Assembly: GCA_043808325.1 (NCBI GenBank)
Contig: JAZDEY010000044.1
Span: 62,001 to 126,000, forward strand
Source: JAZDEY01 sp043808325 [NCBI: Candidatus Eiseniibacteriota bacterium]
GTDB taxonomy: Bacteria; Arandabacterota; Arandabacteria; Arandabacterales
Reading direction: 5' to 3'
Length of the DNA stretch: 64,000 nt
Shown here one piece after another: positions 6,958-32,667 of the stretch. The notes under the pieces were generated by a model. That model did not search any database. It was not told where the DNA came from and worked only from the letters and a program-made list of their open reading frames with translations. A program made the position numbers and the translations under genes. Positions within the stretch are counted from its first letter, which is position 1. Every line of letters begins with the position of its first letter.

Positions 6958-6967
6958 GGACGGGCTG

Positions 6968-7921: not shown

Positions 7922-7929
7922 ATAATGGC

Positions 7930-7958
7930 TTGACCGCGATGCTTCCGGTTATTAGGTT
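7930..7958 (+). promoter_or_regulatory. Sigma-70-type promoter for the leader RNA and surface cluster
   Basis: TTGACC (7930-7935) and TAGGTT (7953-7958) are 17 bases apart, directly after the accA stop. Transcription would begin about 7965, before a structured leader of some 80 bases that ends in a terminator. Confidence 0.5.
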
Positions 7959-7964
7959 TAGGTG

Positions 7965-8044
7965 GTTCCGACTCCCCAATTCACCGGGGGGAGAGCGTGA
8001 ATTTCAAGTCCTCAGCCCCGGGCAACGGCGCCCGGAGTTTTTTT
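7965..8044 (+). ncRNA. Structured leader or small RNA candidate, ending in an intrinsic terminator
   Basis: Between the promoter and the Trm112-like gene lies an RNA of about 80 nt with two hairpins. The first pairs CTCCCC (7972-7977) with GGGGAG (7988-7993). The second is a terminator (8018-8044). It matches no riboswitch class I recognise. It could be a free small RNA or an attenuator controlling the genes downstream. An in-frame GTG at 7997 would extend the Trm112-like ORF through the terminator, but the ATG at 8063 has its own ribosome site, so I treat this stretch as non-coding. Confidence 0.4.
8018..8044 (+). terminator. Intrinsic terminator (attenuator position)
   Basis: CCGGGC (8018-8023) pairs perfectly with GCCCGG (8030-8035) across a 6-base loop. 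Seven T residues follow at 8038-8044. It lies between a promoter and the start of the next gene, so it would end or attenuate transcription into the surface cluster. Confidence 0.65.
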
Positions 8045-8062
8045 ACTGCGAGGGAACGAGAT

Positions 8063-8236
8063 ATGGCCTTTGACCGGAGGCTACTCGATATTCTTGTCTG
8101 CCCCAAATGCAAGGGTGCCCTCCAGTACGATCCGGAGGGCTTAAAACTCCTGTGTGGATGCTGCGGGCTGGCCTACCCCATAAAGGACGACATACCGATC
8201 ATGCTCGAGGGGGAAGCCGAGAGGATAGACGGATAA
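8063..8236 (+). CDS. Trm112-family zinc-ribbon protein
   Basis: A 57-residue protein of the YcaR/Trm112 family. It begins MAFDRRLLDILVCP and holds a CPKC knuckle (C13, C16), a second cysteine cluster CGCC, and the family ending AYPIKDDIPIML. Eukaryotic and archaeal Trm112 proteins activate methyltransferases; bacterial members are little understood. The ATG has GAGGGAACGAG before it. The stop codon overlaps the next start (TAATG), so the pair is translationally coupled. It is preceded by the attenuator-like leader. Confidence 0.85.
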   Translation: MAFDRRLLDILVCPKCKGALQYDPEGLKLLCGCCGLAYPIKDDIPIMLEGEAERIDG

Positions 8237-8670
8237 TGTGTTCAGTCGCTCATGTGGCCTTGGGAGCTCTCATCGGAAGCCTGATCAATAACCACTTGGC
8301 GGCCTTCGCTATGGGCCTCGCGAGCCACATACCTCTGGACATTATGCCCCACTTTGATTTCAAGGATTTTCGTGCCGATGCCGGGGTATCTATAGGGCTC
8401 TTGGGATTGATCCTTCTAGCGGGAGGATTCTCTCCCCTCTTGGCCGGTGCGTTGGGGGCCGTTCTGCCCGATTTTGAGAATCTGCTGTGGAAGCTCGGCA
8501 TAATTGATGAGAAGCGCAAGATCTTTCCAACTCATTCAGGACTGATTGAACACGGCAGGGCAAAAGGCGCCGGAGGCATCAAGGCTGAAATCGTGCTGTC
8601 CGCTCTGTCGGTTGCGGTCGTGCTGCTGGCCGTGTTCCTAAGAGTCTTCCTAAGAGGAGGAACGGCTTGA
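8236..8670 (+). CDS. Small membrane protein, YdjM / metal-dependent hydrolase-like
   Basis: 144 residues with about four hydrophobic segments. The N-terminal half carries His and Asp residues in a pattern (SHIPLDIMPHFDF, and later LPDFENLL) like the inner-membrane YdjM/metal-dependent hydrolase group. That assignment rests on motif resemblance and could be wrong. The ATG overlaps the Trm112-like stop by one base. Longer starts upstream would overlap that gene completely, so I reject them. The last codons overlap the TTG start of the C25 peptidase gene. Confidence 0.6.
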   Translation: MCSVAHVALGALIGSLINNHLAAFAMGLASHIPLDIMPHFDFKDFRADAGVSIGLLGLILLAGGFSPLLAGALGAVLPDFENLLWKLGIIDEKRKIFPTHSGLIEHGRAKGAGGIKAEIVLSALSVAVVLLAVFLRVFLRGGTA

Positions 8671-11600: not shown

Positions 11601-12650
11601 GCGCTCAGGCTGACTCCCCCTGTGCTTGACGTCACGGTCACTGCGGCCCAGAGCGATACCTTGCGCCGGAAGGAGATCCACCAGTTCTCGTGCCTCGTGG
11701 AGAACAGCTCTCTCCAGGCGGCCCGCTTCGCAGGCACGGCCGATATCACAATCAGAGAGGCTTTCGATACTACCGGCTATGTGACCTGCACAGGTTCTTT
11801 CCTGGATTACGACATCCCGGGAAACCCGGTCTATAGAGGTAAGGGCTCGGCGGCGAACACGGCTCTCACGTTCCAGGCGTTTGTACCCGCGGATGCGCGA
11901 GAGGGCCGGCGAGGCCAGGTCAGGTGTTTCGTGACCGACGGCGAGACCTCCGGTTCGGGGCTCCTTGACGATCTGGTGATCCGCGGGGAGAGTATATCGG
12001 GGGACAACGTGGGACCTGAGATCAGCCTGCTCGGTGACGGCGGAAGTCTTGAATCGGGCGACAGCGTGCGGGTGGGCGATAGGCTTCGCCTGAGCCTGGT
12101 TGATGACAGCGGCGTTGCCGTCAAGGCCAAGTCCGAGTTTATTCCTGCGGTCACAATATCGGTGGACGACGGCGGGAAGCAGGACATCACCGACAGCGTA
12201 TACGCTGCGGCCGGGGATTTTACGAGATCGGAGGCTTGGTTCGTGGTCCCACCGCTCAGTGTCGACCTCCACAAGTTCACGATTGCTGCTTTCGACAATG
12301 TGAACAACCTCTCGATTCGTGAATACACCTTGTTGGTAGGGTCCAAGGGCGGGCAGGCGAACAATCTCGTTTATGCCTATCCCAATCCTGCGAACGGATC
12401 CTGCTATATCGTCTGTGAGTATGAGCGGCAGGTCGCTGTCGATATTGCGATACATACCATCTCGGGAAGGAAGATATGGGAGAAATCCTCGTTGGAAGCG
12501 AGAGCATATCATCAGATTTTCTGGGATGGAACCGATATAGAAAGTGATAAGGTCGCCAACGGGGCTTACCTCGTTAAGGTGGAGGCAAGGGACCCGCTTG
12601 ATCCAGGCTTCAAGGCGACCAAGACCATCGTGGTTGCTCTAATCAGATGA
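8667..12650 (+). CDS. Gingipain-type C25 cysteine peptidase, PorU-like, with FlgD-like C-terminus
   Basis: A 1,327-residue secreted protein. The TTG start has a perfect AGGAGG six bases upstream and is followed by a signal peptide (to about residue 25). An N-terminal region of beta-rich prodomain type precedes the peptidase C25 domain at roughly residues 620-990. The catalytic pair is visible as H849 (in NYTGHG) and C883 (in AASCNVSRFD). The end (about residues 1230-1327) is an FlgD/T9SS-type sorting-like Ig domain with YPNPANG. In Bacteroidota, PorU is the C25 enzyme that cleaves sorting domains off type IX cargo, working with PorV. A PorV-like gene follows directly here, supporting that role. 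It could instead be a secreted cargo protease. Confidence 0.85.
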   Translation: MRSNIAGILVGVMILSAPLGLALASARIENQSGQNLTLRFDITDLKEIKDEKGRWAGVRIPGFLPAMDESLGLYVPATSYLVAIPIGSDVDCRVFDPTYYEIEVYDLSTPGIKPALLRDLPRAVAEVTARGYIGNQCVASVRISPLVLDRATGRLRVYTGFGVSFDFGNAPDGATEAVGLGAGDAGSFEETYKAALINYEQGKKWRRKGAASLSAGDYFNSSAVWIKIKTESTGVYCLTGRDLEAIGAEIGSIAPQTLRLYTGGGLPLGESLAESNPSWMRQVAIKVRDGGDGKFGSGDSLLFYGLGISDWANFYDARLPIEAYTKSFYSDFNYYWLTWGGSFQEPPERMAKVNLPSCEGCSTYRPTSFLERVHAEQNNLNDFIVQAEDGWYWRPLRAGDAVAILANTFSPDILRPAHVKVRVADWHRSEECGVAFFYAILRVNGATVADSIWEPGPNLAKDLQATVTLVNSSVQRIDISMPASLPPDTAYAGKGVCDRLYLAWYELRYWSRFTARGNALFFLSPDTTATTRYEIGGFTVPSVYVFDVTDQFKTRELRGAQVSGGPAFTVAIEDTTREDVLRRYAVVAQAALLKPREISRPAISNIRGRTAAEYCVITHQDLLEPATTISDFHDGEVVTTDEIYNEFGWGVPDATAIRDFLRWRFAQRGQQLFRVLLFGDASWDVKNYKNAPFPNYVPAYERRYLPPTSNPYTTDDWFAYLEPDVGDSTAYWPTIPIARIPASSPEEGALIVSKILEYITNPELGPWQNRVMIVADDDRIGTSCGSFDNNLHTQYAEALSNQYFPQVFDHVKIYLTEYPLESTGLKPAARAAFIKNLNEGVLITNYTGHGDQLRLAQEEVFNPASVGLVHTGRKQTFFIAASCNVSRFDEAASSSMAEELLRKPDGGTIGSLASTHLAMPQPNQLINANFIGAIFGPEAKKYPVIPIADAAMIAKAKTVAFSRYYYANDEMYVLLGDPALRLTPPVLDVTVTAAQSDTLRRKEIHQFSCLVENSSLQAARFAGTADITIREAFDTTGYVTCTGSFLDYDIPGNPVYRGKGSAANTALTFQAFVPADAREGRRGQVRCFVTDGETSGSGLLDDLVIRGESISGDNVGPEISLLGDGGSLESGDSVRVGDRLRLSLVDDSGVAVKAKSEFIPAVTISVDDGGKQDITDSVYAAAGDFTRSEAWFVVPPLSVDLHKFTIAAFDNVNNLSIREYTLLVGSKGGQANNLVYAYPNPANGSCYIVCEYERQVAVDIAIHTISGRKIWEKSSLEARAYHQIFWDGTDIESDKVANGAYLVKVEARDPLDPGFKATKTIVVALIR

Positions 12651-12664
12651 GGGAGGGTCGAGAC

Positions 12665-13669
12665 ATGGTTCGCAGGGTGGTGGGTCTGGCCGTGTTGATT
12701 GGGCTTGGCTTGTGCTCGCAGGCGATGGCCGTAGGCGAAGCGGCTGCACCTTCACTGATCATATCGCCGTCGGCGAGAGCATGGGGCCTGGGGCAGTCCT
12801 TCGTGGCCGTGGCCGATGATGCGACTGCGATGTACTGGAATCCCGCCGGACTTGGATTCCTGGAAGGCAGCCATCTCTCGCTCACCCACAGCCAGCTGAT
12901 ACCTATGCTTGCCGATGACGTCTACTTCGAGACTTTCGATATGGCTCACAGTGTCTCCGACATCGGTACCTTAGGGTTGAGCATAATCTATCTCACCTAC
13001 GGCAAGTGGTGGGAGACCACGGCGGGGGGCCAGGAGGTCGCGGAGCACACCAGCTATGAGTTTGCCTTCGGCGGTTACTACGCCCTCAGATTGACCGACA
13101 CGGCGTCTCTGGGAGTAGGCCTCAAGGTGTGCCACGTGTTTCTCTCGCCTGCGGTCGAAGCCACAGGTTTCAAGGAGGGTGCGGGAACCAGTTTCGCGGC
13201 GGACTTCGGCATTCTGGCCAGACCGACCCCGCGCATCTCATTCGGGATTGCCCTTCAGAACCTGGGTCCCGACATGAGCTTCATCCAGAAAGAGGACTCC
13301 GCCCCGTTGCCGAGGACCCTGAGGGGAGGGATCGCTTTCAAGCCTTTTGTCGGCGAGGAGTACTCAACCCTGGTCTCGCTGGAGGCGACCAAGGCGCTGA
13401 TCGGGCTCAACGAGATCTTCAGCAAGGGCCATTTCAGCGAAGTCAGGCGCGATGCTACCTTGAACGGTGGTGTCGAACTGACCTTCGCGAATTTCGTTTC
13501 GCCGCGGACGGGATACATCTACGACCCTGACGGCAAGATCAAAGGCTTCACCTTCGGCTTCGGGGTCAGAGTGCCGGTGGGCCGCGGCCTCAACTTCAAC
13601 TACGCGAGCGTTCCCAAGGCCGAAGACCTCGGCAGGGAAAACAAGTTCTCTCTGGACTATAACCTCTAG
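12665..13669 (+). CDS. PorV/PorQ-family outer-membrane barrel protein
   Basis: 334 residues with a signal peptide ending near AMA. The mature N-terminus has the family signature (SARAWGLGQ, then DDATAMYWNPAGL) found in PorV/LptO and related 14-strand barrels of the FadL superfamily. Alternating strands run to a C-terminal barrel strand. In type IX secretion PorV shuttles cargo from the translocon to the PorU attachment complex. The PorU-like C25 gene overlaps just upstream. A start at 12647 is possible, but the ATG at 12665 has GGAGGG eight bases before it. Confidence 0.85.
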   Translation: MVRRVVGLAVLIGLGLCSQAMAVGEAAAPSLIISPSARAWGLGQSFVAVADDATAMYWNPAGLGFLEGSHLSLTHSQLIPMLADDVYFETFDMAHSVSDIGTLGLSIIYLTYGKWWETTAGGQEVAEHTSYEFAFGGYYALRLTDTASLGVGLKVCHVFLSPAVEATGFKEGAGTSFAADFGILARPTPRISFGIALQNLGPDMSFIQKEDSAPLPRTLRGGIAFKPFVGEEYSTLVSLEATKALIGLNEIFSKGHFSEVRRDATLNGGVELTFANFVSPRTGYIYDPDGKIKGFTFGFGVRVPVGRGLNFNYASVPKAEDLGRENKFSLDYNL

Positions 13670-13691
13670 GGTGAAGAAGGGAGAGGGATTG

Positions 13692-16600
13692 GTGCGGTGT
13701 AGGTGCCTGCTCCGCGTTGCACTTTTCGGGATCCTCCTTGCGGCCTGCATGCCCGGGTATGCAGGCATCCTGAGGATCGAGAAGCCTTTGCCCGATTCCG
13801 GCCTGACCGGGATCGCCGATGTCAGAGCCGAGAAGTGGCTCAAGGCGCCTGTAAGAGACCTGCCCTCGAAGCGACATCTCTTGCGGCGGACGGAGAAGAA
13901 GTTCCCCCAGGTGTCGGGCCGGCGCGGCCAGGATGTGCTCCGGCTATGTGCGATCAGGGTCGAGTTCGAGAGTGTGCCCGATCCCGCCAAGATTTCGGGC
14001 AACGGCGGACGGTTCGATCTCAGCGACCGGCGCAGCACCATTTTCATCGATCCCCCACCCCACAATCGGAAGTATTTCTCGAAGCACATGGAGGCGCTTG
14101 CCAACTATTTCCGCGCGATGTCCTACGGCAAGCTGGAGATCCAGTGGGAGGTGTTCCCGCTGGCCACCGACGGCGCCTACCGGGTTCCGGGGGTCGAGAA
14201 GTATAACCCTGAAGGCGTTGTAGGATCATGGTCCTGGGATAATCTGGAGCTCTTCTTCCGGGACGCGATCACCGCGGCTGACCAGGACCCCGATCTTCGA
14301 TTCAGCGATTTTGATGCCTTCCTGATCTTCCATGCGGGCTCCGACTGGCAGAATGACCTGCGCGGGGACAGCCCCTACGACATTCCCTCGTTCTTCATCT
14401 CGCTTGCCGAAAGCATTGCGGTCGATGACAGCACCTTCTTCGTTTTCGATGGAAGCGTGGTTCCCGAGACCGGTTCTCAGGACGGCTATCTTAACGGGAT
14501 AAACGGCGTGGTGGCCCACGAGACCGGCCACCAGGTTGGCTTGCCCGATCTCTACGATACTCAGACCGGCATAAGCGCGGTTGGCTACTGGGATCTGATG
14601 GACTTTGGGTCGGGCGTAGGGGTCGTGCTCGAGGACCCGAGCACCAGCGATGCCTATTACGTCACGGGAATCCTCCCGGGATCGATTTCAGCCTGGAGCA
14701 AGTCCGTACTGGGCTGGGTGGTGCCCGATACGCTCACGGATCAGGCAAGCTTCACGCTCAGGGCCACCGAGCTTCAGGGTGAAAGCCCGAACCGGGAAGC
14801 CGTTATGATTCCGATCAACTCGTACGAGTACTTCATTATCGAGAACCGGCAGAGCGACCTTGATGGTGATTCCACGGGCATAATCCTTTCCGATCCCAGC
14901 CCGGATTCCACCGGTGTAATCATGGGCCCGGTGGACGCGGACCGCCAATTCAATTATGAATATGACTGGCCGCTTCCCGGAAGCGGACTCCTGGTCTGGC
15001 GCATAGATGATGTGATGGTAAGGCTTCTGTCTCCCTACGACGCCGTCAACGCTTTTCCCCAGCGACGGGGTGTGAGGCTCCTCGAAGCCGACGGGATTCC
15101 GGATCTTGGAGATTACAACTCGTTCTATTTTCTAGGGAGCCCCTATGACCCGTTCTTCAGGGGCAACAACGACCTGCTTGCCGACGACACCTATCCCAAC
15201 TCGAGAAGCGGTAGCGGCTGTTATTCCCACATCGTGGTTGACGGCATAAGTGAATCATCGATCGCGATGGATCTGCGGGTGAAATACGACTGGCGCAAGC
15301 GGGGCTTTCCCCTGGCGCTCGGTGATTCACTTCGCTTCGGCGTGCCCTCGCTCCTTGTCGGCGACACTGATAATGACTCGCGCGACGAAGTGGAGGCCGC
15401 GCTTAAGCGCGCAGCGTGGAAGGATTCCGTACGGATTGTGGATGGGGACACCGTCGACGTGCAATACGTGGAGTACTCGTATGCCCAGGTCTATGCTTTC
15501 GACTACAGTGCGGGTGGTGGGCTTGGTCTGGTTCCGGGCTGGCCGCGGCGGCTCCACGGATCGAATCCCACGGAGCTTACCGGCGCCGATCTGGATGGGG
15601 ACGGCCGGCTGGAGACCCTGGTCGCCGATGAGACCGGGAGGGTTTACGCCTTTCGCGGCGACGGCTCGGCGTTCTATCCTTGGTCAGATTCCCTGGCGGC
15701 GTTCCTTGTTCGCGAACGCATCAATGGTAGCCCTGTGGCATTTCGTGTGCCCGGCGAGCAACGTGACCGAGTGGCATTAGGGACGGATGATGGGATTGTC
15801 TTCTTTGGTGAATCGGGCCAAGTTGTCGACCAATCACCTGCTGCCGCATCGGATGGATCGATGGTCCCTGCGAGTCAGCCGGTCGTGGCCGATCTCTTTG
15901 ATTTCGAACAGGGCCTCGAGACGGTTTATTATACGGTAGGCGCAATCATTGTGGAGGGCTATGGCGGCGATCTTCACCACTGGCCCGTGGCCTGTTCCGC
16001 CGAACCGGATCAGGTCTTCCTCGCCGTGGCGGACCTCGATCGCAAGGACGATGCGGCATTTGAGGTTCTCCTGGTATCCCGAGATGGCTGGGTGTGGGTG
16101 TTCGATTCCGCGGGACAGGAGTTGCCCGGCTGGGGCAAACAGGTTTGCGATCAATTGGTCGGTCCACCGGCCTTTGCTGACGTCAATACGGACGGCTATC
16201 TGGAAGTGATTCTGACCGATAGGAACTTCGAAACCAGAGTCTTTACCTGGAATGGCAGCCACCTCGCCGGGTGGCCCGAGAAGTGGTTTGGGTGCTCGCT
16301 ACCGGCCTGGGACGGGGGCTTCTTCACCGCCGATACCACCATCGCAGTACCCTCGCCGGTGGTTGCCGACTTCGGCTGCGGTGGGCAACTCGGTATCTTC
16401 CAGGGCTCGCTCTTTGAATGTATAGTAGGGTGGGGCCCGGATGGGGCGGGGCTTGAAGGATTCCCCGTGACGCTCGGCGGCGGCTGCTCGTCAGTCGCGA
16501 TCGGGGACATCGACGGTGACAGTAGGATGGATCTGGTTGCAGGCAGTGGCGACGGTCACCTCTATGGGTTCTCCAATCCGGGATGCAGCGGAGCGGATTT

Positions 16601-16970
16601 CAGGGCGCCCTGGCGGACGGCATACTTCGGCGTGGAGAGAAACTGCGTCTACCCGATGGAGCTCTTGCCTCCGGTTCCCGAACCTGGGACGAGACTGCTG
16701 GTCGAGGGCTCCTTCCATGCTTTCCCCAATCCGGTCACTTCAGGAGCTGTCACCTTTGCATTTGAGAGCGACACGGGCGGCGATGCCAGCGTGGAGATCT
16801 TCGATTTGACCGGGGCCACCGTGAGCTCGGCCCGTTTCTTCGGCTCGGGGAAAGTGGAGAAAACGATCGATTTAGCCGATCTCGGCAACGGACTCTATGT
16901 GTGCAGGCTCGATCTTGCCGGCGGCGGCAAGAAGGCGAGTGAGTTTTTCAAGTTGGCGATAAAGCGGTAG
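13692..16970 (+). CDS. M6-family metalloprotease with repeat region and T9SS-type sorting domain
   Basis: About 1,092 residues, secreted (signal peptide with AACMPGYAG near its end). The M6 (immune inhibitor A-like) peptidase domain contains the zinc site HETGH (H276, E277, H280), followed by GYWDLMDFGSG. The middle (about 550-1000) carries VCBS/FG-GAP-like segments rich in DxDxDG (for example DLDGDGR and DIDGDSR), which suggest a calcium-bound propeller. The last 80 residues begin FHAFPNPV and end in a short basic tail, the layout of a type IX sorting (type A) domain. It is a likely cargo of the PorU/PorV-like pair just upstream. A GTG at 13671 is an alternative start. Confidence 0.85.
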   Translation: MRCRCLLRVALFGILLAACMPGYAGILRIEKPLPDSGLTGIADVRAEKWLKAPVRDLPSKRHLLRRTEKKFPQVSGRRGQDVLRLCAIRVEFESVPDPAKISGNGGRFDLSDRRSTIFIDPPPHNRKYFSKHMEALANYFRAMSYGKLEIQWEVFPLATDGAYRVPGVEKYNPEGVVGSWSWDNLELFFRDAITAADQDPDLRFSDFDAFLIFHAGSDWQNDLRGDSPYDIPSFFISLAESIAVDDSTFFVFDGSVVPETGSQDGYLNGINGVVAHETGHQVGLPDLYDTQTGISAVGYWDLMDFGSGVGVVLEDPSTSDAYYVTGILPGSISAWSKSVLGWVVPDTLTDQASFTLRATELQGESPNREAVMIPINSYEYFIIENRQSDLDGDSTGIILSDPSPDSTGVIMGPVDADRQFNYEYDWPLPGSGLLVWRIDDVMVRLLSPYDAVNAFPQRRGVRLLEADGIPDLGDYNSFYFLGSPYDPFFRGNNDLLADDTYPNSRSGSGCYSHIVVDGISESSIAMDLRVKYDWRKRGFPLALGDSLRFGVPSLLVGDTDNDSRDEVEAALKRAAWKDSVRIVDGDTVDVQYVEYSYAQVYAFDYSAGGGLGLVPGWPRRLHGSNPTELTGADLDGDGRLETLVADETGRVYAFRGDGSAFYPWSDSLAAFLVRERINGSPVAFRVPGEQRDRVALGTDDGIVFFGESGQVVDQSPAAASDGSMVPASQPVVADLFDFEQGLETVYYTVGAIIVEGYGGDLHHWPVACSAEPDQVFLAVADLDRKDDAAFEVLLVSRDGWVWVFDSAGQELPGWGKQVCDQLVGPPAFADVNTDGYLEVILTDRNFETRVFTWNGSHLAGWPEKWFGCSLPAWDGGFFTADTTIAVPSPVVADFGCGGQLGIFQGSLFECIVGWGPDGAGLEGFPVTLGGGCSSVAIGDIDGDSRMDLVAGSGDGHLYGFSNPGCSGADFRAPWRTAYFGVERNCVYPMELLPPVPEPGTRLLVEGSFHAFPNPVTSGAVTFAFESDTGGDASVEIFDLTGATVSSARFFGSGKVEKTIDLADLGNGLYVCRLDLAGGGKKASEFFKLAIKR

Positions 16971-16981
16971 GAGGCAGCACC

Positions 16982-17902
16982 ATGCCAAGATGGGTGCACA
17001 TCCTGACAATAGCATGCTGGCTCACGGGTTTGGCTGCCGCAGGGGTATCGTCCGGGCCGGCCCGCAGCGATTTCAATCTCAGGGCCGGGATCCTCATAAA
17101 TGGGATTGACGCTAAGGACGAAGGCGACCGGCCGGTCACAGTGGGCAGTGGCGGTGCCGGCCGGGAGAAATCGGTGGTCAGAGGGATGCTGCTTTCAGCA
17201 CTGCTTCCCGGGCTGGGCGAGATCTATGCCGACGGTACACGCGGTCATGTCTCGGGAGCCGTGATGGCTGCGACAGACGTTTTTTCCGTCTGGCAGTACT
17301 TCACCAACAACGGCAAAGGGGATGACTGGAAGCAGGACTATCAGCGGTTTGCCCGAGCGCACTATGATAGGGATAGCCTCGGAGCATATATCAGGGGTAC
17401 CATCGCCGTATACAGCGGAACCGAAGCGCTGGGCCGGTGCCGGCCCGGACCCACCTACGATCCAGTTGCATGTAGCGTGCAGGTCGATGAGATCTTTCCG
17501 CTTTCCAAAACGAACGACGACGACTTCTATCTACAGATAGGGACCGAGGACAGGTACATCTTCGGGTGGGATGACTGGAATACCGAGGGAATCGAGAACC
17601 CGGAGGTCAAGTGGACCGGCTGGAATCCGGGCGACCCCATCCCCGTGGATTTCCAGTCGAGGTCGGCGCGCAGGGTGGAATATCAGGGCATGAGAGACCA
17701 CGCGGACGATTTCTACAGCAAGGCTGATCGTTATGCGTGGGTGATGGTGATTGGACGCGTGATAAGCATCGTGGACACGGCGATCCTGGTGAAGCTCCGA
17801 AACCGCGATCTGGCGGGTGTGGGCACCAACCCGCGCTTGAGTCTTAAGGTTGATCTCCTGGGCAGACCCGATTTCAGAATGGCGATCAAGGTGAGGTTCT
17901 AA
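16982..17902 (+). CDS. DUF5683-like membrane-associated protein, copy 1
   Basis: 306 residues, ATG after a strong AGGAGG. A signal-like hydrophobic N-terminus is followed by a hydrophobic segment with the motif SALLPGLGEIY, typical of DUF5683-type proteins found in Bacteroidota-related genomes. A second hydrophobic stretch and a long soluble region follow. The C-terminal VMVIGRVISIVDTAILVK stretch matches a similar stretch in the next gene. Function is unknown. The tight spacing (11 bases before, 3 after) shows it belongs to the surface-protein operon. Confidence 0.6.
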   Translation: MPRWVHILTIACWLTGLAAAGVSSGPARSDFNLRAGILINGIDAKDEGDRPVTVGSGGAGREKSVVRGMLLSALLPGLGEIYADGTRGHVSGAVMAATDVFSVWQYFTNNGKGDDWKQDYQRFARAHYDRDSLGAYIRGTIAVYSGTEALGRCRPGPTYDPVACSVQVDEIFPLSKTNDDDFYLQIGTEDRYIFGWDDWNTEGIENPEVKWTGWNPGDPIPVDFQSRSARRVEYQGMRDHADDFYSKADRYAWVMVIGRVISIVDTAILVKLRNRDLAGVGTNPRLSLKVDLLGRPDFRMAIKVRF

Positions 17903-17905
17903 CAT

Positions 17906-18592
17906 ATGCGATTTGCTGTGAGGGTCACGATAATCGTGCTTGTCTCGTTGGCTTCCGCGATACCGGGTTGGGGTGCAGCGCCGGGCAGGGACAAGTCCTT
18001 GAGAAAGGCCCTGCTCCTGTCGATGGTGGTCCCCGGGGCAGGGGAGGCGTACCTGGGATACACCGGTCGCGCGAAAGCGATGTTCGTCTCCGAGGCCGGT
18101 GTCTGGACAGGTCTTGCTTTGTTCCGAGTTCAGGGCAGAATGAGAGAAGACAGCTACAAAGAGATGGCCCACCTCTTTGCAGGGGCTCCCTCCGAAGCTG
18201 ATGACTATTACTACAAGGCGATCGCCTACTATCTCTCCAGTGAGGAATACAACGTCGACGTGTTGAGGGATGCCCGCCTGAGGTATCCGGACGATCGGGA
18301 GGCGCAGCTCGCCTATTTCGAGCAAGGAAGCTATTTCGGAGACAGGGCCTGGGAGTGGGACAGCCTTGAAAAGATGGAGGCCTATGATCGCGCGCGCACT
18401 TTGAGCCGCGAGAGCTACAGGAGGGCCACGCTTACCACAGGCTTTGCAGTTCTCAACAGAATGATCAGCATGATTGATGTTTATCTATCCTTTAAGTTGG
18501 GGCGGGAGGCCGTAGGGCAGTCAGGGCTTGGCTTGAGGGTAGAGGCAGCGCCTGATTACGGCTTTAGACTTTACCTTGGAGCGCCATTCTAG
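17906..18592 (+). CDS. DUF5683-like membrane-associated protein, copy 2
   Basis: 228 residues. It has the same layout as the preceding gene: N-terminal signal, then LLLSMVVPGAGEAYLGY corresponding to the PGLGEIY motif, a charged middle with many Tyr and Asp, and a C-terminal RMISMIDVYLSFKLG matching RVISIVDTAILVKLR. The two are probably tandem duplicates that have diverged. It starts 3 bases after its neighbour, so it is in the same transcript. The role is unknown. Confidence 0.6.
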   Translation: MRFAVRVTIIVLVSLASAIPGWGAAPGRDKSLRKALLLSMVVPGAGEAYLGYTGRAKAMFVSEAGVWTGLALFRVQGRMREDSYKEMAHLFAGAPSEADDYYYKAIAYYLSSEEYNVDVLRDARLRYPDDREAQLAYFEQGSYFGDRAWEWDSLEKMEAYDRARTLSRESYRRATLTTGFAVLNRMISMIDVYLSFKLGREAVGQSGLGLRVEAAPDYGFRLYLGAPF

Positions 18593-18619
18593 GCCACCGC
18601 TCAGAGAGCGGCTTCACAC

Positions 18620-19543
18620 ATGCGTACACCGGTCTTGGTCTCGCTCACATGCATCCTATGTCTTGTAGCCTTGTCTGTGCCGGGGCAAGGCCCGGTCCGG
18701 GCGGAAGGCGCATCCCCAAACGTACTTCCCGAGTCGTGCGTGAGCCACCTTGCTTCCGTCCCATGCTTCGATGCCGAGACCGGCCTGAGGTTCTCGCCGC
18801 TGGGGCTTGCCTATGACGTGACGGGAGCTCTCTACGTCGTAGATTCCGACAATTCCAAGATCTTCGTTGTCTCCGATTCCTCTGGGAGCCTTGGGTTCTT
18901 TGCCGGCTGCCCTGAGGGGCTGGGTGGCTGCAGCTTCATAGATATTGCGACCGATGCCGGGTGGTTCTACGTCTCGGAGAGATCGCATGGTTTGCTCGTG
19001 GTGCTTGATTCAAGGGGCAGCCCCCGCCTTACGACCGAGGTCGGTGGTGGTATCGGGGGGATTGGCTTGGGGGAGCCCGGGCAGGTCTACGTCGCAATGA
19101 CGCATGCCGGTTCGATTGTGATCAGCGATGTCTACGGTGAGAAATCCCCGATTGTCTGCCCGATATCGGGTGGTGGCGAGGGTTCCTATCCGATCGACTG
19201 CTTGGTCGAGAAATCGCAGAGGGTGTTGGTCACCGACGCCAACTCGAAGAAGGTACTGATACTGGGGATCCTGGGCGATAGCCGTGGTTATCTTGAGGGT
19301 TTCGCCTTCAAGAATCCGTTTGGAGTCACGGCAACCGCTGACGGCCTGGTCCTGGTCTCGGACTCCGGGCTAGGTCTGGTTGCAGTTTTCGATGCCGCCG
19401 GCAAGTTTCGCGGTACGTTCGGGCAGGGCCATCTCAAGACGCCGGCCTTCATCGCTGCCAGAGGTGACGGCACTGTGTCCGTTGCCGATCCCGGCAAAAT
19501 GACCGTCGAGGTATTTCACTTTGAGGGACTGGGGAAGGAATAG
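18620..19543 (+). CDS. Secreted NHL-type beta-propeller protein
   Basis: 307 residues with a signal peptide (about residues 1-30). The mature part is built of repeats of about 40 residues of the type GALYVVDSDNSKIFV, HGLLVVLDSRG, VLVTDANSKKVLIL, LVLVSDSGLGLVAVFD. These resemble NHL / six-bladed propeller blades. Such proteins are usually binding or scaffold modules. It lies inside the surface cluster and its 3' end overlaps the TTG start of the large outer-membrane protein by 23 bases, so the two are likely translated together. Confidence 0.7.
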   Translation: MRTPVLVSLTCILCLVALSVPGQGPVRAEGASPNVLPESCVSHLASVPCFDAETGLRFSPLGLAYDVTGALYVVDSDNSKIFVVSDSSGSLGFFAGCPEGLGGCSFIDIATDAGWFYVSERSHGLLVVLDSRGSPRLTTEVGGGIGGIGLGEPGQVYVAMTHAGSIVISDVYGEKSPIVCPISGGGEGSYPIDCLVEKSQRVLVTDANSKKVLILGILGDSRGYLEGFAFKNPFGVTATADGLVLVSDSGLGLVAVFDAAGKFRGTFGQGHLKTPAFIAARGDGTVSVADPGKMTVEVFHFEGLGKE

Positions 19544-22500
19544 GATTCTCTGGCTGGTGTTCGTACTCGCCCTGTCGGGAGCTACGGGCACGGCGTCGGC
19601 CGAAAGTGTTACGGTGTCGAGCCGGCATCAGGAAACCTTCACAGCCGCCGACTTGTCGCGCCCGGTCGTTTATCTTTCCTGTCGGCCGCTGGTCTCGTCA
19701 AGTGAAACCGTAACACTTGACGGCGCGCTGCTTCGGTGTGACGCGGACTACTCCGTAGACTACCTCGAGGGCATTATCTACCTCACCCGGGCGGCTGCGC
19801 CCGGAAGCTCGATTTGTGTGGGCTACTCGGTTTTGCCTTTTGCCTTAAAGCCGAGCTACCAGCATAGGGAAATCCAGGAGCAGAGCCATGATCCTCTGGG
19901 GGCGGCCAAGATCCAACCGATCTTGAAGCCAAGGAAGTCGTCGTACGATCTCAAGGCCTCCGGTACCAAGACCATAAGCATTGAAGCCGGGAGTCTCAGC
20001 GACTTTCGGGTGAGTCAGGCCTTGAATCTGGCCATAGGCGGGAAGGTCGGGGACGCCGTGGAGGTAAGAGGGGTGCTCTCCGACAAGGACATGACCTTGA
20101 GCGAACGGACATCGACCACGGAGCTCAAGGACCTTGATCGCGTCTTCATGGAAGTGCGGTCGACTCGAGCGTATGCACGGGTGGGCGATCTGGAAATAAA
20201 CGAAGCCCCCGGGGAGCTCCTGAGTTTCAGGCGCAGCCTTACGGGTTTCCTTGGGGATGCTTCATTTGGTTCCGAACGCGTGATGCTTTCGGGTGCCCAA
20301 TCACGGTCCAGGTACGAGACCGCAGAGGTCACCGGCCGGGAGGGTATCGCCGGCCCCTACTTTTTGAGTGGTCCCGAACGCCTGGAGATTGCGATTGTCA
20401 CCGGCACCGATAAGGTCTGGCTTGATGGCGAATCGATGAAGCGGGGCCGGAACGCGGATTACGTGATCGACTATGAGAAGGGCGAGATCTATTTCAATCC
20501 CAGTCGTCTGGTCCGCGACGGGGCCAGGATCGTCGTCGATTTTGAAAGCCGAAGCGAGAGCGAGCGTAAGCAGTTCTATTTTGCACGCTCCAATCTTAAG
20601 TTTGGCGCCAGAGCCGGTATCAGTGTCAGCTTCCTTAATGAAGGCACTCTTCCGCAGGCGGCGGCCGGCCCGGACCCACTCGGTGTAAGCCCCGAGAACC
20701 TCGGAGCTCAGGCTCAAGGCTGGCTTGACGGTGCGAAGTACGTGGGCCTGGGAAACGGCGATTACTTCCGGGTCAAGCAGGACTCGCTGGTCTACTACGA
20801 ATATGCGGGCGAGGGTGCCGGCGAGTACGATGTTAGCTTCACTTTCGTCGGTGAAGGCAAGGGAATCTACTCCTATGTTTTCTCCGACAGGTGGGGGCGT
20901 GAAGTTCATATCTATACCGGCTTGGGAGCCTACGTCGATAGGATCCGTGAGGCGCCCAAGCTGATGTCTCAGGTGGTGCACCTCGGCGCGTCCGCCAGAC
21001 CATCGGACTGGCTCGAATTGACGTCGGAATTCGCCCAGTCCAAGGGCCACAAGGAGGCGCAGGACGGCGCTTGGCGCCTGAGTGAGGATCGGGCGTACAC
21101 CGTGGGCGCGAAGAGCAACACCGATTTGCCCAGGGTGGGCGGGCACGGGATCGGTGGCGTCGAGTTAGCCCTCAAGCGCCGGTGGGTGGGGCCGGGTTAT
21201 CTTGCCTTTGATAGACTCAGGAGCCCTGGCATTCTCGAGCGCTGGGCCGAGGATCCCGGTGACGGCTTTGAGGCGACCAACGAACTCAGTTTCGGCTATA
21301 GACTTGGAGCCGGGGTCAAGACTTCCTTTGAACTGGGCTCGATGGGAACCCGGGATGGGGATTCGCGTCGCACGAGGTATGCGGTCGACGTCGGTAACGC
21401 CAGGCTGGGACTTGCTGCGACATCCGAGGTTGCCAGAGTCGAGTCGGGTGCCAGGGAACGCGGCATCCGGCGGAGTGGGCTTGCCGTCAGAGTCCCCGTC
21501 AAGACGATCGACCTGGAGTTCGGCAGAACTTCGGATCTCAAGGACCGTCTCACCGACGACCAATCCCAGATGCGGGTCGAGTATTATTCGCTGGCCAGGG
21601 TCCGAGCGAGCCGAAGCACCGCCGCCCTTAGTCTCACCAAGGGTACCGAGGCGAGGTCCGCCAGCGGGGCGGCCCGCGAGGCATATTCCAGCTCGCTTGA
21701 CGGCAAACTCCAGTTTGAGACCGATCAGGGGCGGAGGTTCGCTTTTCGGGGACAGGTAGCGCATCGGCGGGTCAGCTACGTCCCGCCGGTTGAGCTTGGC
21801 CGGCGGCAGATGACAAGCGCCGACTTCGGGCTCAACCTGAGGGACATTCTGGTCCTGAGCTCGGTAGCCTTGGACTATGGCCTCGCCAGCACGCTGACGT
21901 CGGTCTATTCCAGCAAGCTCGTGAAGGTCGGGGCTGGTGGCGACTACGACAGCCTCGGCAACTACCTTCCGGGCTCCGGCGGTTATGAGATAACGCGGTA
22001 TGAGACCGGCAGGCAGCCTGTCACACGAATGAAGGCCAACTTCGTAGTGGAGGCCGGCCTAAAGGGCAAGATTATGCTCGAGAAGGCGCTCTCCTTAAGA
22101 AGCACGCTTGAGCTCGAAGGTGAGAGCTCCAAGGACAACATCGGACATCTTGCACTTCCCAATCCGGCCTTTGTAACCCGAGCCGACCAGGTTGTGTTCG
22201 GTAGGGCAAACCTCAACGAGGAACTGGTGCTAAACCGTTTCAGGGGTGTCACCGTTGCGATGGTCGCTAGGGCAACCAAGACGACCGACCGAAGGTGCTC
22301 CGAGCGCACCGAGCAGGATCTAACGACCCAGTTCCAGACCCGAGTATCGAGTACCAGCTTGAACAGACTGAACGTGGCCTTGGAGGGCCGCTTGGGACGG
22401 GTGGAGAAATCCATCGAGACCAGCTCAAGTAAGATCCAGCCGTCCAGTCGCACCTGGTCGGTCAGCGCCGGCTTTGAACGGTTCGTAGCCAACTCGTTTC

Positions 22501-22820
22501 GCGGACGTTTCATGCTTGAGATTCTTGGAGACCGGCGGAGCGAGCCCCGGTCGAGCCTCACCCAGGGGAGTATCTCCCCCGGATTCACCCTGTTCCTTGG
22601 TCCCCTGCGGTGCGATACCGGGCTGAATGTGAGAAGACTCCTCAGGTCGCGCTCACTGTCCCCTTACGAATTGCGCTCGAGGGATTTACTGGACTGGAAC
22701 TCACGAATCAATCTCCGTCAGGGCAGGTACACCTCGCTTGCCCTGGAGTATGTTGGTCGCAGGACGCGCGGGCTTGATACCGTGCACAACGTCAAGGCTT
22801 CACTTAGTGCCACATTCTAA
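19521..22820 (+). CDS. Large outer-membrane beta-barrel protein with SprA-like segments
   Basis: 1,099 residues. After a signal peptide there are two copies of a small module: one near residues 65-105 (LDGALLRCDADYSVDY) and one near 299-345 (VWLDGESMKRG, then DYVIDYEKGEIYFNP). This 'LDG...DY.IDY..G.I.F' pattern resembles repeats I associate with the type IX translocon protein SprA. From about residue 500 onward the protein is a run of alternating strands ending in a barrel-type C-terminus. It is only about half the length of SprA, so it may be a relative, a truncated form or an unrelated barrel. The TTG at 19521 has a GAGG nine bases before it and gives a complete signal peptide; a GTG at 19557 is an alternative. 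Confidence 0.55.
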   Translation: MRDWGRNRILWLVFVLALSGATGTASAESVTVSSRHQETFTAADLSRPVVYLSCRPLVSSSETVTLDGALLRCDADYSVDYLEGIIYLTRAAAPGSSICVGYSVLPFALKPSYQHREIQEQSHDPLGAAKIQPILKPRKSSYDLKASGTKTISIEAGSLSDFRVSQALNLAIGGKVGDAVEVRGVLSDKDMTLSERTSTTELKDLDRVFMEVRSTRAYARVGDLEINEAPGELLSFRRSLTGFLGDASFGSERVMLSGAQSRSRYETAEVTGREGIAGPYFLSGPERLEIAIVTGTDKVWLDGESMKRGRNADYVIDYEKGEIYFNPSRLVRDGARIVVDFESRSESERKQFYFARSNLKFGARAGISVSFLNEGTLPQAAAGPDPLGVSPENLGAQAQGWLDGAKYVGLGNGDYFRVKQDSLVYYEYAGEGAGEYDVSFTFVGEGKGIYSYVFSDRWGREVHIYTGLGAYVDRIREAPKLMSQVVHLGASARPSDWLELTSEFAQSKGHKEAQDGAWRLSEDRAYTVGAKSNTDLPRVGGHGIGGVELALKRRWVGPGYLAFDRLRSPGILERWAEDPGDGFEATNELSFGYRLGAGVKTSFELGSMGTRDGDSRRTRYAVDVGNARLGLAATSEVARVESGARERGIRRSGLAVRVPVKTIDLEFGRTSDLKDRLTDDQSQMRVEYYSLARVRASRSTAALSLTKGTEARSASGAAREAYSSSLDGKLQFETDQGRRFAFRGQVAHRRVSYVPPVELGRRQMTSADFGLNLRDILVLSSVALDYGLASTLTSVYSSKLVKVGAGGDYDSLGNYLPGSGGYEITRYETGRQPVTRMKANFVVEAGLKGKIMLEKALSLRSTLELEGESSKDNIGHLALPNPAFVTRADQVVFGRANLNEELVLNRFRGVTVAMVARATKTTDRRCSERTEQDLTTQFQTRVSSTSLNRLNVALEGRLGRVEKSIETSSSKIQPSSRTWSVSAGFERFVANSFRGRFMLEILGDRRSEPRSSLTQGSISPGFTLFLGPLRCDTGLNVRRLLRSRSLSPYELRSRDLLDWNSRINLRQGRYTSLALEYVGRRTRGLDTVHNVKASLSATF

Positions 22821-24531
22821 GGTCGAGCCCGTCTCCGGCATCCTGTCAGTACTGGTGCTGGCTTGCGTGCTTGGGGGTCTTCCCGGCGTGGTTCCAGCGG
22901 AGAACGCACGCTTGGTCGTGACCGGCAACTCGCACCTCAGCCTTGATGCGATCACGGCCGAAACCGCCAAGGTCGTCTGTGCCGGTGCGGACTCCTTCTG
23001 CGCTGACCAGATTTGTAAGACCATAGCCGGGGCATACTGGGCTCAAGGCTACCTTGACGCCGAGATAAAGTGCGAAAGATCGAATGCGACCGGCGACACG
23101 GTGAGAATAGCCATCTCCGAAGGCACACCAAGTCTTCTCGCTTCGATCAAGCTGGATGGAGCCTCAGGCGAGGACACGCCTCAGCTTGATGCGATCTTTG
23201 CCGGCAGCAGGGGGATTCCGTTTTCGAAGCCCGAGCTTGAGGAAGCGATCGATGACGCGCTCGGCTTCTATGATGGCCGCGGCTATCCGCTGGCCAGGAT
23301 CCGGCCTGAAATCCTCGAGGTTGCCCGTGGCGAGCTGGGAGTGATCCTCAGGATTTCGCCGGGGCCGAGGGCCAAGCTGGGTCGTGTGAGTTTCCGGGGT
23401 ATGAAGAAAACCAGGGAATCGGTTTTGCTTCGCGAGTCGGGCCTTGTTGTGGGTCGAGCGTATGATGGTGACCGGGTTGACGGCGCCAGGGAGAAGCTCT
23501 TGGGCCTCGGCATACTTGAGGAGGTCTCCGAGCCGGTCCTGGGCTTTGACTCGCAGGACACTACGGTTGCAATTACCTTCGACGTCGCGGAGGCCAGGAC
23601 AAGCCTCTTCGAGGGAGTGCTGGCTTACTCTCCGGGCGCCGAAGGTACAAGTCTGGTGGGTTCCTTCACCCTGGAGATGCTGAACCTTGGAGGGACACTC
23701 CGGCGCGCGAAGGTTCTCTGGACCAGAAGGGGCGACCGCAGGCTCAGCTGGAGTCTGTATTACCGGGAACCTCGGCTGGTGGGCAAGCCTCTGGGGCTTG
23801 AGGCCGGTCTGTCGTCCGACGTGGTCGACACATCGTATGCCCGCAGCAAGTTCTGGGTCGGCCTGATCTTTGTGGGTGAGCCGCGGCTTGAGATTGGAAC
23901 CGGCGCCTTCCTTGGGTCGGCCAAGGACCGGGCTCCGGCGGGCGGCGAGGGCAGTTTCAGGGAAAGAGGGCTATCGTTCTCACTGCGCTACGAGGGACGA
24001 ACGGCGCCCGTCAATCCGCAGTCGGGAGGTTTCTTCGAGGTCTCCCACGAGGTGGAATCCCTGGATTATGTCGATGACCCCGCGCTTGACCGTACGCTCT
24101 CGAATCTCGCATCTGGCGCCGAGTACGTACTTGGACTCGCCGGCCGCACCAAGCTAACGTTTGGTGGCCGGTTCCAGGGGGTTTTCTCCAGCTCCGGCAG
24201 GGTCCCACCCTCTCACATGGTCAGATGGGGTGGCATGGAGACCCTGCGGGGCTACCCCGAGGAATGGTTTAACGTTGAAAAGGCGCTTACGCTCAGCCTT
24301 GAGGTGAGGAGGCTGCTGGGAGCCTACTCCCGAATCTATGCTTTCATCGATGCGGCTACCCTTGGAGGCGCCACCTCCTCCTTCGGTAACCTCGAGAACC
24401 TCCCCTATGGTTACGGCTTCGGTTTCATGGGGGGAACCACCGCAGGGATGCTGCGGCTGGAGATCGCCATGGGCCGCGGGGATACCTGGTCGGAGGCCAA
24501 GCTCCATCTTGGTTTCGTGGAGCAGTTCTGA
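22807..24531 (+). CDS. Omp85-family (BamA/TamA-like) outer-membrane protein
   Basis: 574 residues. A signal peptide (hydrophobic run ending near VVPA) leads to about three POTRA-type repeats up to roughly residue 280. One carries the GYPLARIRP strand-helix pattern and another GKVSF-like GRVSFRG. The C-terminal half is the 16-strand surface-antigen barrel and includes the GGMETLRGYPEE segment, the family's conserved RGY motif. Omp85 proteins insert or translocate proteins through the outer membrane. The chain is shorter than a normal BamA (five POTRAs), so this looks like a dedicated accessory Omp85 for this cluster and not the housekeeping BamA. I chose GTG 22807 (14-base overlap, AAGG before it) over the ATG at 22738. 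Confidence 0.85.
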   Translation: MPHSKVEPVSGILSVLVLACVLGGLPGVVPAENARLVVTGNSHLSLDAITAETAKVVCAGADSFCADQICKTIAGAYWAQGYLDAEIKCERSNATGDTVRIAISEGTPSLLASIKLDGASGEDTPQLDAIFAGSRGIPFSKPELEEAIDDALGFYDGRGYPLARIRPEILEVARGELGVILRISPGPRAKLGRVSFRGMKKTRESVLLRESGLVVGRAYDGDRVDGAREKLLGLGILEEVSEPVLGFDSQDTTVAITFDVAEARTSLFEGVLAYSPGAEGTSLVGSFTLEMLNLGGTLRRAKVLWTRRGDRRLSWSLYYREPRLVGKPLGLEAGLSSDVVDTSYARSKFWVGLIFVGEPRLEIGTGAFLGSAKDRAPAGGEGSFRERGLSFSLRYEGRTAPVNPQSGGFFEVSHEVESLDYVDDPALDRTLSNLASGAEYVLGLAGRTKLTFGGRFQGVFSSSGRVPPSHMVRWGGMETLRGYPEEWFNVEKALTLSLEVRRLLGAYSRIYAFIDAATLGGATSSFGNLENLPYGYGFGFMGGTTAGMLRLEIAMGRGDTWSEAKLHLGFVEQF

Positions 24532-24543: not shown

Positions 24544-24572
24544 TTGACTTGGCGGGGGTTCTGAGATATATT
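24544..24572 (+). promoter_or_regulatory. Strong sigma-70-type promoter for the thiC-hut operon
   Basis: TTGACT (24544-24549) and TATATT (24567-24572) are separated by exactly 17 bases. The leader to the thiC start is only about 45 nt, too short for a thiamine-pyrophosphate riboswitch. Confidence 0.7.
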
Positions 24573-32503: not shown

Positions 32504-32523
32504 CGTATTGACATATAGATCAA

Positions 32524-32667
32524 GTGTGGGCGCCGCAGGCTTAATAGGGAAGCACTCAAGCGCGGCCCCGCCACTGTAGTCGGCGACGAAACCCGCATGT
32601 GCCACTGGGGCAACCCGGGAAGGCGCGGGGAGTAGGATGACCCGATAGCCAGGAGACCTGCCCACAC
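32524..32667 (+). promoter_or_regulatory. Cobalamin (B12) riboswitch
   Basis: All hallmark pieces are present in order: AATAGGGAAG, the B12-box region GCGGCCCCGCCACTG, a GGGAAGGCGCGG segment, AGTAGGATGA, and AGCCAGGAGACCTGCC at the end. The closing helix P1 is GTGTGGG (32524-32530) with CCCACAC (32661-32667). It should bind adenosylcobalamin or a related form and lower expression of the two uptake genes that follow. Confidence 0.95.

What the first reader, a model, noticed from the sequence alone, without database searches (positions are those of the whole stretch)
8667..24531. Co-directional outer-membrane/secretion cluster: C25 peptidase, PorV-like, M6 cargo, DUF5683 pair, propeller, SprA-like barrel, Omp85
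Eight adjacent genes with gaps under 30 bp or overlaps encode a PorU-like peptidase (H849/C883), a PorV-like barrel, a likely cargo with a C-terminal sorting domain, and two further large outer-membrane proteins, one of them Omp85. In Bacteroidota, PorU and PorV are type IX parts, but an Omp85 protein and tandem DUF5683-like proteins in the same operon are not part of the known machine. This may be a compact or divergent secretion and surface-attachment system in a non-Bacteroidota phylum. PorU/PorV roles are inferred from motifs and adjacency.
Basis: partly seen in the sequence, partly recalled or inferred. Interest (0 to 1): 0.75.

Follow-up and report, generated by a model that had tools for sequence, protein, structure and literature searches.

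The report
Type IX secretion operon, unassigned barrel
This is the surface-attachment part of a known bacterial protein-export machine (type IX secretion), found in a little-known bacterial group and joined in one operon to a predicted outer-membrane protein of unknown function that turns up almost only in genomes that have this machine, which makes that protein a good candidate for a missing part of it.

Summary
The eight genes are real, co-directional and tightly packed (8667-24531). The C25 peptidase is a PorU sortase (over the NCBIfam cut-off; matches PorU crystal structure 6za2; His/Cys dyad in 20 of 20 sequences checked). Next comes a PorV-family protein, then an M6 metallopeptidase with a type A sorting domain. 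So this is a type IX secretion (T9SS) locus outside Bacteroidota, but not a self-contained system: sister genomes keep the SprA translocon elsewhere, and the 'SprA-like' barrel shares only about 100 residues with SprA. That barrel ('BAR') belongs to an unannotated family of ~1100-residue predicted outer-membrane proteins, found in 39 of 49 SprA-positive but 4 of 144 other genomes in one set, and in 93 of 117 versus 0 of 31 in a Bacteroidota-like set. Outside the phylum an Omp85 gene follows it directly in 19 of 33 loci; PorU, PorV and BAR share a stretch in 8 of 37. Best reading: a PorU-PorV attachment module fused to a propeller-BAR-Omp85 module; BAR is a candidate unrecognised T9SS component, its function inferred. 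No GldL/M/N motor was recognised, but divergent ones escape the models.

The parts
8236..8670 (+). Small predicted membrane protein (mechanical ORF from 8107), first gene of the unit; overlaps PorU by 4 nt
   Evidence: homologues of ~140 aa directly before PorU in L001, L002, L022, L023; only a weak YdjM match, 9.9 of 29 bits
8667..12650 (+). PorU, type IX secretion sortase (C25 peptidase with a C-terminal sorting-like domain); dyad H849/C883
   Evidence: NF033707 565.4 bits (cut-off 420); PDB 6za2 PorU E 3.2e-62; dyad 20 of 20 checked
12647..13669 (+). PorV-family protein, probable outer-membrane shuttle (possible start also at 12665)
   Evidence: NF033709 202.3 bits (cut-off 90) but under the PorV equivalog cut-off; PDB 6h3i_F PorV E 1.8e-24; 70-74% identity to sisters
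13671..16970 (+). M6 metallopeptidase with FG-GAP repeats and type A sorting domain: T9SS cargo; zinc motif HETGHQVGLPD
   Evidence: PF05547, PF18962 and TIGR04183 over cut-off; zinc motif in the window protein and 11 of 11 homologues, but in none of 4 further ones
16982..17902 (+). D1, DUF5683-like protein with N-terminal hydrophobic segment
   Evidence: PF18935 15.9 bits, below gathering 26.7; similar to D2
17906..18592 (+). D2, DUF5683-like protein, relative of D1
   Evidence: PF18935 16.0 of 26.7 and PF20382 (DUF6677) 16.6 of 24.3 bits, both below gathering
18620..19543 (+). NHL-repeat beta-propeller with N-terminal hydrophobic segment, no sorting domain matched
   Evidence: PF01436 45.7 bits; a propeller gene directly before BAR in 16 of 37 loci outside the phylum by the first profile, 19 by the widened one
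19521..22820 (+). BAR: ~1100-aa predicted outer-membrane protein of an unannotated family; contains a module shared with SprA, ends in Phe
   Evidence: no Pfam or NCBIfam model over cut-off, no PDB match
22738..24531 (+). Short Omp85-family protein: POTRA domains plus barrel; true start uncertain
   Evidence: PF07244, PF08479, PF01103 over gathering; BamA and TamA structures; directly after BAR in 19 of 33 loci outside the phylum

Best explanation
The unit is the outer-membrane processing and attachment module of a type IX secretion system, fused in one operon with a second module (propeller, BAR, Omp85) that is probably also part of that system. Shown by sequence: PorU sortase, PorV-family protein, M6 cargo with type A sorting domain, SprA encoded elsewhere in sister genomes, conserved gene order, and co-occurrence of BAR with SprA and PorU. 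Established for these families (literature): cargo crosses the inner membrane by Sec and the outer membrane through SprA, is collected by PorV through its C-terminal domain, and PorU removes that domain and links the protein to the surface. Inferred: the M6 protein is exported by this route; BAR is an accessory outer-membrane platform of translocation or attachment; the short Omp85 folds or partners BAR; the propeller is a soluble adaptor on it; the two DUF5683-like proteins have no assigned step.
For: PorU: searches (565 bits; 6za2), dyad in 20 of 20 checked. PorV family. Cargo. SprA elsewhere. All eight genes in the same order on one contig in three sister genomes, G002, G004, G005. Outside the phylum PorU, PorV and BAR share a stretch in 8 of 37 loci; the full set is seen in G108, and in G018 and G078 with one weak call each. 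BAR and SprA: 39 of 49 against 4 of 144; BAR and PorU: 34 of 36 against 9 of 157; second set 93 of 117 against 0 of 31. Omp85 directly after BAR in 19 of 33 loci. On a quick BAR tree the PorU-linked loci need 7 changes of state over 55 rows, so the linkage is old and often lost, or has recurred.
Against: In 20 loci of the Bacteroidota-like set Omp85 follows BAR in 0 of 19 with room downstream and no PorV is seen; one holds a PorU-type match. So the operon link is lineage-limited. BAR is missing in 10 of 49 and 24 of 117 SprA-positive genomes, so it cannot be essential everywhere. Counts are not corrected for relatedness. Inside the phylum, housekeeping neighbours (dnaE, accA, thiC, urocanase) are equally syntenic, so in-phylum order alone proves little. 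BAR's barrel is inferred: the structure model failed (pLDDT 27).
Confidence: 0.62

Rival explanations
1. Ordinary T9SS attachment genes (PorU, PorV, M6) that happen to sit next to an independent outer-membrane biogenesis pair (BAR and Omp85) serving envelope assembly in general.
For: In the Bacteroidota-like set BAR is away from Omp85 and PorV; propeller-BAR-Omp85 occurs without PorU in the stretch in many loci outside the phylum, e.g. L058, L063, L070.
Against: BAR is nearly confined to SprA-positive genomes in two sets; PorU-linked clusters recur on several branches of the BAR tree.
Confidence: 0.25
2. BAR is a second, smaller SprA-type translocon and the cluster is an alternative secretion route with its own sortase and shuttle.
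For: BAR contains the SprA-type module and scores 30.9 bits with the SprA model; PorU, a PorV-family protein and a cargo lie in the same operon.
Against: Only 85-102 of ~1100 columns align with SprA; sister genomes have a separate SprA; the same module also weakly matches phage tail protein models.
Confidence: 0.08
3. The C25 and PorV-like proteins are an unrelated secreted protease and FadL-type porin that resemble T9SS parts.
For: PorU-model matches at E <= 0.001 occur in 107 of 193 genomes but pass the cut-off in only 36, and ring below cut-off in 2 of 14 control genomes; the PorV-like protein stays under the PorV equivalog cut-off (117.4 of 250 bits).
Against: PorU equivalog cut-off passed, and in G002 the cluster gene is the best PorU match (568.1 against 183.0 bits); the best PDB matches are PorU and PorV themselves.
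Confidence: 0.04

Closest known systems
Type IX secretion system of Porphyromonas gingivalis and Flavobacterium johnsoniae
   Same: PorU sortase, PorV-family protein, type A CTD cargo, SprA in sister genomes
   Different: PorU and PorV share an operon with M6, two DUF5683-like proteins, a propeller, BAR and a short Omp85; no GldL, GldM or GldN over cut-off in the SprA-positive relatives tested
PorU-PorV-PorQ-PorZ attachment complex
   Same: PorU and PorV-family proteins; a beta-propeller protein is encoded nearby, as PorZ is a propeller protein (PorZ architecture recalled)
   Different: The NHL propeller matched no sorting-domain or PorZ model; only one PorV/PorQ-family gene in the cluster
SprA/Sov translocon
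   Same: Shared ~100-residue module in BAR
   Different: No full-length homology; BAR is about half the size and coexists with SprA
BamA and TamA (Omp85 assembly factors)
   Same: POTRA domains plus Omp85 barrel
   Different: Shorter than BamA and below the BamA equivalog cut-off (93.8 of 297.15 bits); position directly after BAR

Membership tests
Type IX secretion system | SprA/Sov translocon in the genome | tested here: met
   Met in sisters: over cut-off in 3 of 3 genomes first probed and in 8 of 8 genomes of the sister phylum. The window's own genome is not held
Type IX secretion system | PorU sortase | tested here: met
   NF033707 565.4 of 420 bits; 6za2
Type IX secretion system | Cargo with type A C-terminal sorting domain | tested here: met
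   M6 protein TIGR04183 29.0 of 23 bits, PF18962 31.8 of 27
Type IX secretion system | GldL/GldM (PorL/PorM) motor and GldN/PorN ring | tested here: inconclusive
   TIGR03517, TIGR03513 and TIGR03523 over cut-off only in G071 of 193 (GldL has 4 weak matches below cut-off). PF22827 over cut-off in 0 of 49 SprA-positive relatives and 8 of 8 GldM-positive controls, but also in 0 of 23 other genomes of the Bacteroidota-like set. TIGR03517 matches only 39 of 117 SprA-positive genomes of that set, and G306, G216, G317 carry divergent GldL/GldM-like genes
Type IX secretion system | PorT, PorW, PorE, PorF, PorG, Plug, PorA | not tested
   No search made for these
PorU | C25 His/Cys dyad and PorU domain order with C-terminal domain | tested here: met
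   20 of 20 checked; alignment to 6za2 runs to residue 1154 of 1156. The CTD itself is under the TIGR04183 and PF18962 cut-offs (18.7 of 23; 22.1 of 27)
PorV | PorV/PorQ family model | tested here: met
   NF033709 202.3 of 90 bits
PorV | PorV equivalog model | tested here: not met
   NF033710 117.4 of 250 bits; hence called PorV-family, not PorV
PorV | FadL-like barrel fold | tested here: inconclusive
   AlphaFold model from three sequences, pLDDT 34; no fold search made
SprA/Sov (for BAR) | Model cut-off and full-length homology | tested here: not met
   30.9 of 200 bits; 102 and 85 aligned columns only
BamA (for the Omp85 protein) | BamA equivalog cut-off | tested here: not met
   TIGR03303 93.8 of 297.15 bits
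Omp85 superfamily | POTRA plus Omp85 barrel | tested here: met
   PF07244, PF08479, PF01103 over gathering
DUF5683 (D1, D2) | Pfam gathering score | tested here: not met
   15.9 and 16.0 of 26.7 bits
T9SS-dependent M6-like inactivated metalloprotease (NF052323) | Cut-off and lost zinc site | tested here: not met
   278.7 of 600 bits; zinc motif intact in the window protein. Four homologues in PorU-PorV-M6 loci of other genomes lack the motif

The most novel reading that the evidence does not exclude
BAR, with its propeller and Omp85, is an ancestral outer-membrane component of type IX secretion that parts lists have missed, and in many FCB lineages the system runs without the GldLM-type rotary motor, the outer-membrane PorU-PorV-BAR-Omp85 assembly being the conserved core.
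Probability: 0.15. Interest if true: 0.85.

Novelty: new variant of a known kind. Interest (0 to 1): 0.6.

Why it matters
The T9SS parts list comes mainly from two model bacteria. A protein family without a Pfam or NCBIfam model over cut-off that tracks SprA in two genome sets, and that in several lineages shares an operon with the sortase and a shuttle protein, is a directly testable candidate for an unassigned step (outer-membrane assembly or attachment). The results also suggest that sortase, shuttle and translocon spread wider than the standard motor models recognise.

Tried and rejected
Motor-less T9SS: attractive, but the control search showed that the GldM model misses most SprA-positive genomes of the Bacteroidota-like set, and divergent GldL/GldM-like genes beside a GldK-like gene exist in G306. 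Kept only inside the novel case.

BAR restricted to candidate phyla: my reading; refuted (93 strong matches in the Bacteroidota-like set).

BAR as SprA paralogue: rejected.

First neighbourhood count (Omp85 after BAR in 16 loci) used a greedy gene caller that hid genes under opposite-strand ORFs and profiles widened over two rounds; replaced (all ORFs; all ORFs, first profiles only), which agree on 19 of 33. One search's count of Omp85 hits among 476 genes has the same flaw and is not used. The group labels on the tree came; one search repeats the change counts with corrected labels. M6 zinc motif: one search gave 11 of 11, but the re-check found four further homologues without it, so it is 12 of 16 with the window's.

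Dropped before counts: weak BAR matches, which may be SprA's shared module. In the 193-genome set only E <= 1e-20 was counted, so G128, G129, G135 and G109, with intermediate scores, count as negative; in the 148-genome set 8 weak matches (G237, G255, G275, G280, G295, G302, G336, G338) were dropped. The genome lists were typed from the tables. Rows left out: L024, L026 and L027 (PorU count), L059, L069, L090 and L027 (Omp85 count), being cut by contig ends.

Structure predictions of BAR and the PorV-family protein were useless; no fold search was run. Viral contig scans found no BAR or only ~50-residue matches to the shared module. Phylum name: not found; the main-text term searches for the sister MAG names in PMC9727166 (Bin_137), PMC11323493 (Bin_137, GMC4) and PMC13271369 (GMC4) had no hit.
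Full report
What is there. Eight co-directional ORFs fill 8667-24531 as described. A ninth ORF (8107-8670; homologues begin at 8236) overlaps the first by 4 nt. A terminator-like hairpin after accA (8018-8035) and a promoter-like site before thiC (24544-24572) frame the unit, though neither scan was above its shuffles overall.

Identities. The C25 protein passes the NCBIfam PorU equivalog cut-off (565.4 of 420 bits). A profile of five orthologues finds the P. gingivalis PorU crystal structure 6za2 (E 3.2e-62), aligned to residue 1154 of 1156. The catalytic His and Cys are present in 20 of 20 sequences that could be checked (19 with the window's, one more; one is partly masked). In sister genome G002 the cluster gene is the best PorU match (568.1 bits; next 183.0). 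The second protein passes the PorV/PorQ family cut-off (202.3 of 90) but not the PorV equivalog cut-off (117.4 of 250); the only PDB sequence found at E <= 1 is PorV, 6h3i chain F (E 1.8e-24). The M6 protein has a type A sorting domain over cut-off and an intact zinc motif. So have 11 of 11 homologues over 900 aa; but four M6 homologues from PorU-PorV-M6 loci without BAR in the stretch (G067, G010, G016, G153) lack the motif, like the 'inactivated' M6 family NF052323 that NCBI describes. The two DUF5683 matches are below gathering. The propeller has NHL repeats. The last protein has POTRA and Omp85 domains and finds BamA and, more weakly, TamA structures.

The barrel, BAR. The window protein matched no Pfam or NCBIfam model over cut-off, nor did five Bacteroidota-like homologues against NCBIfam. 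Neither BAR profile matched a PDB chain. It is not SprA: profile-profile alignment covers 102 and 85 columns of a module that SprA also has. The C-terminal residue is Phe in 52 of 58 homologues, as expected of an outer-membrane barrel. The barrel itself is inferred, because the AlphaFold model from two sequences failed (pLDDT 27).

The translocon is elsewhere. In the three genomes reached first (two sisters, G001 and G002, and a WOR-3 genome, G003) SprA over cut-off lies on contigs other than the cluster's; only in G002 are both contigs long. SprA is over cut-off in 8 of 8 genomes of the sister phylum. The window's own genome is not held, so its SprA is inferred from its sisters.

Conservation inside the phylum. 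The phylum of G002 holds 8 genomes; 7 have BAR. G002, G004 and G005 show all eight genes in order on one contig (L002 with L025; L021 with L022; L023). G006, G001, G007 and G009 show parts of the set on short contigs. No BAR was found in G008. Since dnaE, accA, thiC and urocanase are equally syntenic here, this alone says little.

Conservation outside the phylum. I took 37 BAR loci: 35 of the 36 strong matches outside the phylum (G088 not taken) and the intermediate G128 and G129 (a 38th stretch, L095 from G008, is an SprA fragment). With all ORFs considered, Omp85 follows BAR directly in 19 of 33 loci with room downstream, by the first and the widened profiles alike. A propeller gene precedes it in 16 of 37 by the first profile and 19 by the widened one (the two lists differ in part). 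PorU and PorV lie in the same stretch in 8 of 37 (G078, G111, G108, G139, G075, G034, G018, G112). All eight gene types are seen in G108; in G018 with the propeller found only by the widened profile; in G078 with a weak PorU match (E 3e-7) in a gene that is partly masked; and in G034 all but the Omp85, where the contig ends. Many stretches are cut by contig ends, so these are lower bounds. PorU-PorV-M6 also stands without BAR in the stretch in G067, G010, G016 and G153. In G054 and G063 neither PorV nor M6 is near PorU, and in G145 a PorV match lies about 3.8 kb away. In G067, G016 and G153 the gene after M6 encodes a 1022-1086-aa protein with TolB-like propeller repeats; in G067 it also has an Omp85-type barrel over the Pfam gathering score. 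So a propeller and, in G067, an outer-membrane barrel recur beside PorU-PorV-M6. In the Bacteroidota-like set I took 20 of the 93 BAR genomes: Omp85 next to BAR in 0 of 19, propeller in 2 of 18, no PorV, one PorU-type match of 504 aa; some stretches are short.

Co-occurrence. Over 193 relatives of G002, SprA is over cut-off in 49, PorU in 36, and BAR at E <= 1e-20 in 43. BAR is in 39 of 49 SprA-positive and 4 of 144 other genomes, and in 34 of 36 PorU-positive and 9 of 157 other genomes. Three of the four exceptions (G048, G076, G193) have SprA-model matches below cut-off in frames of 1766-2221 codons; G112 has only a weak one. In 148 genomes of the phylum of G071, SprA is over cut-off in 117 and BAR is found in 93 of these and 0 of the other 31. 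I call that phylum Bacteroidota-like from its T9SS genes; names are not shown. The BAR profiles of the two sets align over 1046 columns. Relatedness is not corrected for, so the Fisher values overstate the significance.

BAR tree. On a quick tree of 58 BAR proteins (20 of 55 inner branches poorly supported, many long branches), 'PorU in the stretch' needs 7 changes over 55 rows and 'Omp85 next' 11 over 54. The linkage is thus old and repeatedly lost, or repeatedly gained; the tree cannot tell which.

How it probably works. From the literature (PMC12618676 and PMC8754138, passages): type A cargo passes Sec and SprA and is collected by PorV, and the attachment complex with PorU, PorQ and PorZ cleaves the C-terminal domain and anchors the protein to A-LPS. 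The window supplies PorU, a PorV-family protein and an M6 cargo. I infer that BAR is an accessory outer-membrane platform of this step, that the short Omp85 is its dedicated folding factor or partner, and that the propeller is an adaptor. No result here shows a function for BAR, D1 or D2.

The motor. GldM, GldL and GldN models are over cut-off only in G071 of 193 genomes; GldL has four weak matches below cut-off, two of them in SprA-positive genomes (G135, G153). The GldL_N domain is over cut-off in 0 of 49 SprA-positive relatives (G149 has a match below cut-off), in 8 of 8 GldM-positive controls, and in 0 of 23 other SprA-positive genomes of the Bacteroidota-like set (G306 below cut-off). But the GldM model itself matches only 39 of 117 SprA-positive genomes of that set, and G306 carries GldL-, GldM- and GldK-like neighbours below the NCBIfam cut-offs. 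Absence of a motor is therefore not established.

Novelty. A 2016 survey (PMC4793230, passages) found T9SS in 60 of 97 Bacteroidetes genomes and in no other clade. A 2018 paper (PMC5837995, passages) says BLAST suggests it in Chlorobi, Fibrobacteres and Ignavibacteriae. PMC4814513 (passages) describes Por sorting domains on chitinases of a Fibrobacteres isolate. [quoted passage not shown] T9SS genes beyond Bacteroidota are thus not new in themselves. The component list in PMC8754138 (passages) names no Omp85 and no family I could equate with BAR; PorF, a poorly characterised component, was not compared. In the capped listings of the paper searches (titles and starts of abstracts seen) no entry is about this operon or BAR; most subscription journals are not in that library.

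Noticed in passing
L149 (G306), 6287-11136: GldK-like (661 aa), GldM-like (380 aa) and GldL-like (242 aa) genes in one run, below the NCBIfam cut-offs; L150 (G216) has genes of matching sizes with GldM and borderline GldL_N matches, and L151 (G317) GldL/GldM-like neighbours: standard T9SS motor models miss this class.
   Followed up: partly
L140:14385-17477 (G067), L145:10373-13633 (G153), L144:673-3741 (G016): Proteins of 1022-1086 aa with TolB-like propeller repeats, plus an Omp85-type barrel (over gathering in L140) and a peptidase-MA domain (over gathering in L145), encoded directly after M6 in the PorU operon of other lineages.
   Followed up: partly
L140, L141, L144, L145: the M6 gene: The M6 homologue lacks the zinc motif in 4 of 4 PorU-PorV-M6 loci that have no BAR in the stretch, while 12 of 12 others examined keep it.
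   Followed up: partly
window 6968-7921: accA stands upstream of PorU here and also in G108, G075, G010, G016 and G153 outside the phylum, an unexpectedly old gene order.
   Followed up: partly
window 32511-32679: Cobalamin riboswitch before a predicted ECF transporter component (32740; Pfam score slightly below gathering) and a TonB-dependent receptor (33361).
   Followed up: no
window 39116-58740: Type IV pilus/type II secretion genes (ATPases, inner-membrane protein, PilS-like kinase and sigma-54 regulator, PilM, secretin) followed directly by a 1038-aa protein of Big_1/invasin-D3 repeats (first ATPase).
   Followed up: no
G071 (a Bacteroidota-like genome): GldL, GldM and GldN are over cut-off but no SprA was found at E <= 0.001.
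   Followed up: no
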